Origin: a virus
Virus record (IMG/VR): IMGVR_UViG_3300037421_000067
Span: 1-24,824 of that record
DNA length: 24,824 nt
Direction: 5' to 3' (one strand)
The notes below the pieces were generated by a model. That model had not been told where the DNA came from. It searched no databases and worked only from the letters and a program-made list of their open reading frames with translations. This document shows positions 678 to 18,246 of the stretch, piece by piece. Both the position numbers and the translations under genes were made by a program. Position 1 is the first letter of the stretch; each line of letters starts with the position of its first letter.

Positions 678-818
678 TGCCGCCCGGTCCCCCGCCTAGC
701 GACGGGCAGTCTTCCCTGTCCTTATCAGTCCACCCTATCGGGCTACGCTACCGCTTGGTGAAGACTGCCCGTCGCTCCGCTCGCCCTATCGGGTTGCTAT
801 CGCAAGGACCGGGCGGCA
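678..818. repeat. large nested inverted repeat upstream of the membrane-protein operon
   Basis: Two perfect pairs of arms nest. The outer arms are 13 nt (678-690 with 806-818). The inner arms are 17 nt (698-714 with 760-776). The element also holds two copies of ccctatcggg (733-742 and 784-793). It is GC-rich, has no convincing reading frame and ends 5 nt before the GTG start at 823. It could be a REP/MITE-like palindromic element, an RNA leader structure, or a site for a replication or transfer protein. I see no target-site duplication. Confidence 0.6.
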
Positions 819-6893: not shown

Positions 6894-6920
6894 AAAAACC
6901 CCATTCATCCAAGAATGGGG
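6894..6920 (-). terminator. rho-independent terminator of the primase operon
   Basis: On the minus strand a perfect 8-bp stem (ccccattc/gaatgggg, arms 6913-6920 and 6899-6906) is followed by TTTTT (6898-6894). The primase stop codon (6905-6907) lies in the 3' arm of the hairpin, the same arrangement as at the leftward HTH gene. Confidence 0.75.
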
Positions 6921-7927
6921 TGGAGGAAAGAGCGAAGCTCCTCCCCTGATAAATGGTCAGGCTGTTGTCCGTCGCCCAACATCACGGCTGTTACGAATTG
7001 TTGTTTAGCAATCTTCGCCGCGATCACGTCCGTCGCCTCGCGCCCGGCCTTATCCCCGTCCAACATGAGAACGACGCTCCTGAAGCGTTTTAAGAGCAAC
7101 AGTTGCGCCTCTGAGATAGTGCTTCCCATGAGTCCGACAGTGTTTTGGAATCCCCCTTGCCATAGGTGCATGACGGAGAAGAATCCCTCAACACAGATCG
7201 CCGTATCATCCATCACCCGATGGACGTTGTAGAGTTCAAGCGTTTTCAAGAATCCGGGCGGGAAGTGATATTTTTCTTCCGCGCCGGCATCCAGTGACCG
7301 CCCGACATACGCAACGAGAAACCCCGCCGCATTATGAACCGGGATGACGATTCGGTACGGGTCTTTGATGACCGACGAGCGGCCACCGAAGTACCCAATC
7401 CCAAACTCCTCAGCAGTCGTGATGCGGATGCCACGCCCCCGGAGATACTCATGCGTCGAGTCAAGGTCTTTGAACCCAGCGAATGAGAGAGGCTTGTTAA
7501 CCATAGGTTCAGCGGTTAACGTCTTGCTTTCTTTTGGCAGTTCAGTAGAGTCAGGAGGTATCACGACGGCAACGCTCTCTTTGGGTTTCGTCCCATTCGA
7601 GGCCGTTGCCTTTTTTGATTCGTTCAGTCCATACCAGTCAACCAGCTTTTGCGCCGCCTGTAGCATGGAGCATTTTTCAAGAACTTGCACGAGGTTGATG
7701 ACATCGCCGCCCTTCTTATTCCCCTTGTTCATCCGGCAGGAGTCGGAGTGACAGAGCCAGAAGTTTTGGGGAACGTTGACGCCGAACGATGTCCTGCTGT
7801 CTTTCGATTCGTGTGTAGGGAGGGGGCATTTGGCATAGTGCCAGTCGCCCCGCCCCTTCAGTGTTACGCCGTACCGCTTGAGAACTTCAAGGATGCTTGC
7901 TTTCTTGATCTGCTCGAAGTCCAACAC
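6905..7927 (-). CDS. DnaG-like DNA primase (CHC2 zinc finger + Toprim)
   Basis: This 340-residue protein would make RNA primers for element replication. The N-terminus carries a CHC2-type zinc finger with C34, H39, C59 and C64 (KCPLPTHES, then WLCHSDSC). A linker (about 105-145) follows, then a region like the DnaG catalytic core (RIVIPVHNAAGFLVAYVGRS). The Toprim domain has CVEGFFSV with the catalytic E247 and VLMLDGDKAG with D290 and D292. There is no helicase domain, and it is shorter than cellular DnaG (about 600 residues), as is usual for phage and plasmid primases. It starts at GTG (7927), two bases after the stop of the upstream small gene, in a two-gene leftward operon. No replicative helicase is visible in the window. 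Confidence 0.88.
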   Translation of the reverse strand: MLDFEQIKKASILEVLKRYGVTLKGRGDWHYAKCPLPTHESKDSRTSFGVNVPQNFWLCHSDSCRMNKGNKKGGDVINLVQVLEKCSMLQAAQKLVDWYGLNESKKATASNGTKPKESVAVVIPPDSTELPKESKTLTAEPMVNKPLSFAGFKDLDSTHEYLRGRGIRITTAEEFGIGYFGGRSSVIKDPYRIVIPVHNAAGFLVAYVGRSLDAGAEEKYHFPPGFLKTLELYNVHRVMDDTAICVEGFFSVMHLWQGGFQNTVGLMGSTISEAQLLLLKRFRSVVLMLDGDKAGREATDVIAAKIAKQQFVTAVMLGDGQQPDHLSGEELRSFLHPILG

Positions 7928-8222: not shown

Positions 8223-8248
8223 AGCTAGATTGAGTTATCCACAGCTAG
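8223..8248 (+). promoter_or_regulatory. perfect DnaA-box match between direct repeats
   Basis: TTATCCACA at 8235-8243 matches the bacterial DnaA-box consensus exactly. It is framed by two copies of AGCTAG (8223-8228 and 8243-8248). It lies between the leftward primase operon and the rightward RNA promoter, a sensible place for replication or transcription control. A single box is not enough to call an origin. Confidence 0.4.
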
Positions 8249-8251
8249 CCG

Positions 8252-8279
8252 TTGACACGGCAAGCCGTTGCGCTATTGT
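8252..8279 (+). promoter_or_regulatory. sigma70-type promoter for the structured RNA
   Basis: The -35 is a perfect TTGACA (8252-8257). A 16-bp spacer leads to the -10 TATTGT (8274-8279, 4/6). The expected start, about seven bases further on, is at 8286-8287, exactly where the 5' arm of the RNA closing stem begins. A small palindrome (cggcaagccg, 8259-8268) sits in the spacer and may bind a regulator. Confidence 0.6.
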
Positions 8280-8285
8280 GAATGT

Positions 8286-8456
8286 AGTGGTTTGTTGATG
8301 GGGGCGCGATGTAACGGCTACTTCAGGTGAGCGTGACGCGATACTCGCTCTACGCAGACGGCAGAAATGTCGTACAGGCAAGCCCGCAAGGGTGAACGCC
8401 TTGAAACGGAGAACAGCCCTGATATGCCTTCGTGCTCCGCCATCAACAAACCACAC
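8286..8456 (+). ncRNA. probable structured non-coding RNA, ~170 nt
   Basis: A perfect 15-bp pairing joins 8287-8301 with 8440-8454, so the ends of the RNA are held together. Adjacent pairings include cggag/ctccg (8407-8411 with 8435-8439), gagcg/cgctc (8329-8333 with 8346-8350) and tacg/cgta (8351-8354 with 8371-8374). There is also a hairpin aggc/gcct (8376-8379 with 8398-8401) that encloses ccc-GCAA-ggg (8383-8392), a GNRA tetraloop that exists only on the + strand. A good promoter begins transcription at the 5' arm. No convincing reading frame fits the stretch. I could not match it to a named class: it has the overall closed shape of 6S-like or phage-encoded structured RNAs, but the interior is more branched than 6S. 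No T-tract terminator follows. Confidence 0.55.
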
Positions 8457-8463
8457 TAAATCT

Positions 8464-8589
8464 ATGAAGTCACAAATCTGTGGTAAAGCATGGTGTCGGC
8501 ACTCCGAAAAGCATCACTCCAAAGATGGTAGACAAATATGCCTCAATAAAGGGTGTCCATGCCTTGGCTTCTCAAAAAGAAAACAATGA
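8464..8589 (+). CDS. tiny cysteine-rich, zinc-finger-like protein
   Basis: This 41-residue protein (MKSQICGKAWCRHSEKHHSK and so on) has five cysteines (C6, C11, C27, C32, C34) and several histidines, arranged like a small metal-binding fold. It begins just after the RNA element and ends in an ATGA overlap with the next membrane protein gene, which supports translation. An in-frame ATG at 8392 lies inside the RNA and is not preferred. The function is unknown; small zinc proteins of phages often bind nucleic acid or host proteins. Confidence 0.55.
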   Translation: MKSQICGKAWCRHSEKHHSKDGRQICLNKGCPCLGFSKRKQ

Positions 8590-16512: not shown

Positions 16513-18246
16513 ATGGTGCAACCATTGACCATCTCCATCATCCAAAAGCATCTCGAATCAGATCGTCTGTTCCGGGAGCGCCGTCATAACCAGTGGACGA
16601 TGAATTACGAACTCGCCCGCGATACGGTCATCGTGAACCGACTCACGCAACGGCAATCAGTCAACGTGCCGTACATGAAGAAGACGCTGAAGACCTACCT
16701 CACGCAGACCAATTGGCCCGTCGATAACTACTACGAGAACCAGGCGAACGACAAGCAATCCGAACTCTACCTCAACGAGTATTGGACCCAATGCGCCGAG
16801 CGGCTCCGGCTCGACATTCTCGAAGAAGTTGACCGGAAGCAGGAATGGCTCTATGGCCGTTCGTTCGCGAAGCTGAACATCATTGACGGATGGTTCCACA
16901 TGGAGGTCATTGACCCCCAGGACGTACTTCTCGACCGCTTCATGAACCCTTGGGACTTGCAGTCGGGAAGGCGCATCACCCACACCGGAATCTACCGGAC
17001 CCTTTCCGATTGCGAACGGAATCCTCTATACGACAAAGCGGCTATCGAACGCCTCAAGATATTCTTCGCCACGAAGCAAGGACTCGTCATTGCCGGACAG
17101 AACGCCCTCATAGCGGCAGACAAGGCAAAGCGTTTGCTTGATCTCGGCGTCCCCGATGTCCTCATGCCACTCCTCGGAGAAACCTACGTCGAATTGAACG
17201 AGATGCAGGTCAAGGTTTGGGACGACGAAAAGAAGGAAGATGTCGTCATGGTCGTCGTCACCGCGAATGCGAATGAGATTCTCATGCAGAAGCCGTTGCG
17301 CGAGATACTCGGCATCAATATGTTCTCTTGGGCTTCTTGGGCCGGAGACGTTGAAAGAACCGACTGTTGGAGCGACGGCGGCGCGGACTCGGTTCGGCAA
17401 TTGAACCTCGTCGCAAACGCACGATGGAGCCAGAAGGTTGAGAATGGAACGCTCGCGAACTATGGGATGTATTTCTATGACTCGACCGCGAAAGAAGGAT
17501 GGACGCCCGTAGGATACGACCCGGCTCCATTCGGCTTCTACCCTCTCCCCGGAAAACCGCAAGACGTTTTGCAACCCGTCACCGTTCCAACGATGCCCGA
17601 CGTGTTCAAAGAACTTGACTGGATCGACAAAGAAATCCAGGGAGTGAGCGGCGCGACGGCAATCGAGCAGGGGCAGGACGACCCGAACGCCCCCGGCGCA
17701 GCGCAGACCGCCCAGGAGATTCAAATCCTCGCCTCGAAAGCCAAGGAACGCGCCTCTAACATTTCCAAATACCACAAGCGATATTGGGAGGACATCGGCA
17801 GAATCTTCGTCGAACTCGTCCAGGCGAACGGCAAAGATATGGCTCAACCGAAGCTCTACAAGAAATCAGCCAAGGGCCAGTATTACCCGAAGACACTCAA
17901 CCTCGCGGAGACGTATTCCAAAGAAGGCTACAAGGTCAAAGTCGGCTCGAAAGCTGATAAGGAGTCGGACAGCTTGCAGACAATCCAAAAGATGAAGGTC
18001 GCCGTCACGGACTTCCCGAACAACGCCCCGCTTCAGAAAATCTACAAGCAGAAGGTCTTGGATTGGATGGGACTCACACCAGAGGAGACGAAAGAAGTCA
18101 TGAACTTCGATGACCAGCAAGCCTCCATGATGATGCAAGCAGGACCCGGCAAGCCAACCCCGATGCCTCCCGTTGCCCCTAAAATCGCCGGAGCGCCCCA
18201 TTTCCCCATGCCAAGCCGTCCCATAGCCCAACCCGCCAATGCTTAA
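16513..18246 (+). CDS. portal protein
   Basis: This 577-residue protein follows the terminase genes, the standard place for the portal, through whose dodecameric ring DNA enters and leaves the head. The length and layout fit: an N-terminal helical region, a 'wing' with VIDPQDVLLDRFMNPWDLQS, a long central part containing MFSWASWAGDVERTDCWSDG, and a helical stem/crown. The QGVSGATAIEQGQDDPNAPG loop and AQTAQEIQILASKAKERA helix are typical of portals. The C-terminal 40 residues are methionine- and proline-rich (disordered). The last eight bases overlap the next start as ATGCTTAA. Confidence 0.82.
   Translation: MVQPLTISIIQKHLESDRLFRERRHNQWTMNYELARDTVIVNRLTQRQSVNVPYMKKTLKTYLTQTNWPVDNYYENQANDKQSELYLNEYWTQCAERLRLDILEEVDRKQEWLYGRSFAKLNIIDGWFHMEVIDPQDVLLDRFMNPWDLQSGRRITHTGIYRTLSDCERNPLYDKAAIERLKIFFATKQGLVIAGQNALIAADKAKRLLDLGVPDVLMPLLGETYVELNEMQVKVWDDEKKEDVVMVVVTANANEILMQKPLREILGINMFSWASWAGDVERTDCWSDGGADSVRQLNLVANARWSQKVENGTLANYGMYFYDSTAKEGWTPVGYDPAPFGFYPLPGKPQDVLQPVTVPTMPDVFKELDWIDKEIQGVSGATAIEQGQDDPNAPGAAQTAQEIQILASKAKERASNISKYHKRYWEDIGRIFVELVQANGKDMAQPKLYKKSAKGQYYPKTLNLAETYSKEGYKVKVGSKADKESDSLQTIQKMKVAVTDFPNNAPLQKIYKQKVLDWMGLTPEETKEVMNFDDQQASMMMQAGPGKPTPMPPVAPKIAGAPHFPMPSRPIAQPANA

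What the first reader, a model, noticed from the sequence alone, without database searches (positions are those of the whole stretch)
8252..8456. Promoter-driven, end-paired structured RNA of unknown class
Seen: a perfect TTGACA, 16-bp spacer and TATTGT predict a start at 8286-8287, and a perfect 15-bp stem begins at 8287 and closes at 8454. Inside are several short helices and a GCAA tetraloop that can form only on this strand. Known: phages and mobile elements encode such RNAs (for example 6S mimics, ωRNA-like or regulatory RNAs). Inference: a dedicated non-coding RNA, placed between the replication operon and the early genes.
Basis: partly seen in the sequence, partly recalled or inferred. 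Interest (0 to 1): 0.8.

Follow-up and report, generated by a model that had tools for sequence, protein, structure and literature searches.

The report
Phage RNA clamp with swappable interior
In the early control region of a family of uncultured temperate bacterial viruses there is a new RNA element: a base-paired clamp kept by compensating mutations, whose contents differ completely from one virus to the next and whose job is not yet known.

Summary
TTGACA (8252-8257), 16 bp, TATTGT (8274-8279) and a perfect 15-bp stem (8287-8301/8440-8454) are present and beyond chance. In 13 copies of the stem from relatives in one virus lineage, 9 of 17 pairs show changes on both sides (0 of 500 shuffles reach this; sliding the arms destroys it). 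Two wobbles and one A.C mismatch are also kept. In seven relatives the same promoter and stem precede the early operon; an eighth has a related stem form. Two relatives have this leader precisely without the element. The stem recurs in a second, 0.5-0.75 kb RNA-like region near the integrase gene.

The interior is not conserved: lengths run from about 45 to 280 nt, unalignable even where flanks are 94% identical. The window's inner helices and GCAA loop therefore have no comparative support. No terminator separates stem and first gene, so the RNA is more likely the 5' leader of the early operon than a proven free 170-nt RNA. Rfam finds nothing; no TnpB, reverse transcriptase or Ro60 gene was found.

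Best reading: a conserved RNA clamp holding exchangeable RNA inserts, transcribed with the early genes. The structure is well supported; the function is inferred.

The parts
8235..8244 (+). TTATCCACAG box (DnaA-box-like) 7 nt upstream of the -35
   Evidence: Same or similar box at the same place in most relatives; TTATCC[AC]CAG occurs 23 times in the family's contigs, permuted versions 0-3 times
8252..8257 (+). -35 hexamer TTGACA
   Evidence: TTGAC at the same place in 7 relatives and, 100 nt further from the module, in an eighth
8274..8279 (+). -10 hexamer TATTGT
   Evidence: TATTGT, TACTAT or TATACT in relatives
8287..8301 (+). 5' arm of the conserved closing stem
   Evidence: Perfect 15-bp pairing; covariation across 13 copies
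8302..8439 (+). hypervariable interior of the module (several predicted helices, GCAA tetraloop at 8386-8389)
   Evidence: Predicted fold only; no homologue in relatives; interior z -1.55
8440..8454 (+). 3' arm of the conserved closing stem
   Evidence: As the 5' arm
8464..8589 (+). first small ORF after the stem (41 aa, Cys/His-rich), predicted first gene of the early operon
   Evidence: Sequence; no homologue found in the fetched relatives, so the gene itself is not certain

Best explanation
The feature is an RNA module: a conserved end-pairing clamp (5' RUGGUUCGUUGAUGG ... CCACCAGCGAAUCAY 3'; in the window all Watson-Crick) that holds a hypervariable insert. It is transcribed from its own promoter as the first segment of the early operon of a temperate phage whose host is probably an acidobacterium. 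Shown from sequence: the promoter and stem are conserved by position, the stem by compensatory change; the module can be precisely absent; the insert is replaced as a block; and the same clamp occurs in a second, longer RNA-like region near the integrase gene. Inferred: a common factor (phage or host RNA-binding protein or nuclease) recognises the clamp with its conserved G.U, U.G and A.C positions; the clamp protects or frees the enclosed insert as a small RNA during early expression; and the insert is an exchangeable cargo, for example a decoy or antagonist RNA (some inserts carry tRNA-like T-arms).
For: Stem covariation: 13 copies, 90% of cells paired, 9 pairs with two-sided change, 20 such cells, 0/500 shuffles, and slid versions give 27-59% paired. 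A second stem form shows the same. Window against consensus: one compensated pair (C-G to U-A), two wobbles turned to Watson-Crick pairs, and the A.C mismatch turned to A-U. Same promoter and position in seven other leaders, plus one leader with a related stem form. Leaders of G007/L008 and G008/L009 read CAGG-TCGA where the others read CAGG-[module]-AAAAGGTCGAA. Insert exchange: the large forms are 94% identical in the 3' flank, yet inserts of 43, 135 and 280 nt are unalignable. T-arms, sense strand only, in 3 of 19 modules against 0.19 expected. All copies are in sense behind a promoter. Host: the integrase of a relative matches best the phage Tunturi_4 of Tunturiibacter (31%, 1e-42); that this genus is acidobacterial is my own knowledge.
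Against: No transcript data. No conserved fold in the inserts, whose folding is only weakly better than shuffles, so the cargo may be mere filler. No terminator or known processing site would make a free RNA. No partner protein was identified. The T-arm excess rests on three cases.
Confidence: 0.45

Rival explanations
1. Cis-acting leader element only: the stem at the 5' end of the early mRNA stabilises the transcript or modifies RNA polymerase (antitermination of the HK022 put kind), and the interior is free filler.
For: Position directly at or near the start site and immediately before the early operon in the short forms; interior without conserved fold; no terminator before the first gene; leaders continue into the AAGGTCGAA motif and a start codon.
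Against: Filler of 45-280 nt is kept and exchanged although flanks are up to 94% identical; the same clamp also sits deep inside a longer RNA-like region near the integrase gene; G007 and G008 do without it; no excess of terminators in the operon (12 found, 12.4 expected).
Confidence: 0.33
2. Non-autonomous mobile DNA element: the arms are terminal inverted repeats and the interior is passenger DNA.
For: Precise presence/absence at one site with AGG on both sides; up to three copies per genome.
Against: All copies found are in sense orientation behind a promoter and none is in a gene; arms differ from each other in a fixed way that keeps RNA pairs (G.U, U.G); no shared interior; no TnpB-type or reverse transcriptase signal.
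Confidence: 0.1
3. Replication origin or primer RNA: DnaA-like box, promoter and hairpin next to the primase gene.
For: TTATCCACA at 8235 and primase at 6905-7927 on the other strand.
Against: The box is a family-wide promoter companion, 23 copies, including in front of the portal gene, not a cluster at one origin.
Confidence: 0.05
4. Chance inverted repeat with no function.
For: Interior helices have no comparative support.
Against: Perfect 15-bp repeat expected about 0 times; covariation across 13 copies.
Confidence: 0.02

Closest known systems
GOLLD and ROOL (large ornate phage RNAs)
   Same: Phage or prophage non-coding RNAs of unknown function with conserved structure and variable linkers, which in GOLLD sometimes hold tRNAs (PMC12286853); here a conserved clamp around variable inserts, some with T-arms
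   Different: No Rfam match; the window element is short and lies in a leader; no conserved ornate core; the larger sister region near the integrase is also unmatched by Rfam where searched
YrlA / bacterial Y RNA
   Same: Ends pair into a protein-binding stem, tRNA-like domain at the other end (own knowledge)
   Different: No TROVE/Ro60 gene in 17 records, no Rfam match, different stem sequence
HK022 put RNA
   Same: Structured RNA at the start of a phage early transcript (own knowledge)
   Different: put is about 65 nt with two hairpins (own knowledge); here one long closing stem with a large, exchangeable insert; antitermination could not be tested
omega-RNA, retron msr-msd, 6S RNA
   Same: Structured RNAs of mobile elements, phages or bacteria whose ends pair (own knowledge)
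   Different: No TnpB-type match over cut-off, no reverse transcriptase, no 6S match

Membership tests
Any Rfam 15 family | Score at or above the gathering threshold | tested here: not met
   No match in the window at gathering; near the element only far-below-threshold hits up to E 10; relatives likewise
YrlA / Y RNA | Ro60/Rsr (TROVE) partner gene | tested here: not met
   0 of 17 records; these are fragments, and the host could supply it
YrlA / Y RNA | tRNA-like domain at the far end | tested here: inconclusive
   T-arms in 3 of 19 modules, not in the window
omega-RNA | Adjacent TnpB/IscB nuclease | tested here: not met
   TnpB-type Zn-ribbon (PF07282): no match over cut-off in 13 records, one weak hit in G018; IscB was not searched for
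Retron | Reverse transcriptase | tested here: not met
   PF00078: 0 of 13 records
6S RNA | Covariance-model match and central open bubble | tested here: not met
   No 6S match to E 10; predicted fold is a branched multiloop, not a central bubble
put-type antiterminator | RNA in cis suppresses termination downstream | not testable with these tools
   Needs transcription assays
GOLLD / ROOL | Conserved ornate core, detectable by the Rfam models | tested here: not met

The most novel reading that the evidence does not exclude
The clamp is a dedicated RNA scaffold of a phage lineage: one recognised helix into which different small RNAs are swapped, used both in the early leader and in a long integrase-linked RNA, so that the virus carries an exchangeable RNA payload, perhaps against host defences or tRNA-targeting enzymes.
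Probability: 0.25. Interest if true: 0.85.

Novelty: new variant of a known kind. Interest (0 to 1): 0.62.

Why it matters
It adds an RNA family with clear compensatory evidence that has no match in Rfam, in uncultured phages that are probably acidobacterial. Its unusual feature, a conserved clamp around inserts that are replaced as blocks, is testable and would point to a way for phages to carry exchangeable RNA payloads. The sister element in a 0.5-0.75 kb RNA-like region near the integrase gives a second handle.

Tried and rejected
Primase as a query in viral contigs found nothing; the portal protein opened the family. A DNA search of the element against named phages gave only short chance-level matches. 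A genome-contig scan with a core of the large RNA gave 15 hits; the ones that BLAST reports match only over 19-30 bases and are taken as chance. A search for the window's insert elsewhere gave one hit inside what reads as a coding region of an unrelated contig, and extra hits of the second arm form lack the partner arm. Of the 20 hits of the first arm pattern, six have both arms, all in this virus lineage. Dropped as explanations: self-splicing intron (no conserved core, copies as short as 77 nt), retron, omega-RNA, 6S, Y RNA, replication origin. Complementarity of the insert to its own genome: nothing above 12 nt, other than the clamp arms pairing with each other or recurring. The portal protein has no relative among named phages, and the large RNA has no DNA match there.

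Full report
What was claimed and what is there. The window is a 24,824-base virus record, apparently of a temperate phage or its fragment: excisionase-like gene, TraG-like ATPases, primase, Erf, SSB, terminase and head proteins; the portal assignment of 16513-18246 is my inference from its place and size, since no library names it. At 8252-8257 lies TTGACA, 16 bases on TATTGT, and at 8287 begins a perfect 15-bp stem that closes at 8454. The stretch folds at -77.3 kcal/mol, z -5.6, and perfect 15-bp repeats within 300 bases are expected about zero times in shuffles.

Relatives. The portal-like protein led to 21 related loci in viral contigs. Two of them showed at once the same promoter and the same arms with a different interior; pattern scans and whole contigs gave more. 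In short form the module sits at the head of the early operon in the window, G003, G011, G013, G016, G017, L083 and L088, and in a related stem form in G018. The arms are RTGGTTCGTTGATGG and CCACCAGCGAATCAY; the promoter TTGAC-N16/17-TATTGT (or a close variant) stands at a nearly constant place, except in G018, where it lies 100 nt further upstream.

Is it RNA structure? For 13 copies the 17 pairs are 90% formed, nine pairs have changes on both sides, and no shuffle of 500 reaches these values; sliding the arms by one to three bases drops pairing to 27-59%. The arms were cut out and joined by a dummy loop for this count, so the alignment is of arms only. A second stem form (UUCGUUCUUUGA with UCAGAGAGCGAA), with only four copies, shows the same. 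Pairs 4 and 9 are usually wobbles and pair 12 is an A.C mismatch in most copies; on the other strand the two wobbles would be mismatches while the A.C would become a wobble, so together with the promoter the + strand is favoured. The window differs from the consensus by one change in the 5' arm and four in the 3' arm, all keeping or improving pairing.

What is not conserved. The interior. Between G014, G017 and G018 the 3' flank is 94% identical over some 210 bases, yet the inserts are 43, 135 and 280 bases long and share nothing. The same holds between short forms G011 and G016, whose promoter flank is 82% identical. Inserts fold only slightly better than shuffles. So the inner helices and GCAA loop of the window have no comparative support. 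Three of 19 modules hold a tRNA-type T-arm, all in sense, against 0.19 expected; the window's does not.

Presence and absence. G007 and G008 have the same early leader without the module, CAGG directly followed by TCGA. The module is therefore a discrete, dispensable unit.

A second home. In G001, G009, G014, G015, G017 and G018 one or two modules of the same kind lie in a 0.5-0.75 kb region near a tyrosine integrase, behind a similar promoter, and with a terminator-like or pseudoknot-like 5' domain. The region is closely conserved in three of them and only partly alignable in the rest. That it is one RNA is inferred from its conservation, not shown. G017 and G018 carry both forms.

How it may work. 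Shown by sequence: promoter, conserved clamp, exchangeable insert, sense orientation in every copy found, placement before early genes. Inferred: a common factor binds or cuts the clamp. I prefer the reading in which the insert is the payload, because filler would hardly be replaced as a block while flanks stay 94% identical; but a purely cis-acting stem at the mRNA start (stability or antitermination) is nearly as likely, since no terminator parts stem from gene and inserts have no common fold. The confidence of 0.45 is for the whole statement; that this is a real conserved RNA structure I hold at about 0.93.

Known kinds. Rfam has no match. TROVE, TnpB-type and reverse-transcriptase genes were not found in the records searched, with the limit that these are fragments and that a host could supply a partner. 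The nearest in spirit are GOLLD and ROOL, phage RNAs of unknown function whose variable linkers may, in GOLLD, hold tRNAs (PMC12286853).

Host. The integrase of G015 has its best match in phage Tunturi_4 of Tunturiibacter; an acidobacterial host is therefore likely, not shown. The portal-like protein has no relative among 50,697 named phage records.

Noticed in passing
L074:695-1444, L065:11079-11778, L077:9555-10524, L052:1650-2440 (-), L070:16040-16740, L066:2201-2770 (-): A 0.5-0.75 kb RNA-like region near the integrase gene, closely conserved in three relatives, with its own promoter, a 5' domain that can form AACCUUUUGA/UCAAAGGGUU next to a U-run, and one or two clamp modules; no Rfam match where searched.
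   Followed up: partly
window 678-818: A second strong inverted-repeat structure (17-bp AGCGACGGGCAGTCTTC with GAAGACTGCCCGTCGCT, and TGCCGCCCGGTCC with GGACCGGGCGGCA), fold z about -5 on both strands, directly before the ORF at 823.
   Followed up: partly
window 8841 and many sites in relatives, e.g. G017:1775, G013:1215, G003:33142: AAGGTCGAA stands roughly 15-40 bases before many start codons; 48 copies against 4-13 for altered versions. It may be a family-specific translation or processing signal.
   Followed up: partly
window 8235-8244 and relatives: TTATCC[AC]CAG, a DnaA-box-like motif, stands upstream of the -35 of early and late promoters in the family (23 copies; permuted versions 0-3).
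   Followed up: partly
L033:9476-9609 and L016:38-126: Integrase ends of two relatives lie next to a tmRNA 3' part and a tRNA-Leu gene, the likely attachment sites.
   Followed up: no
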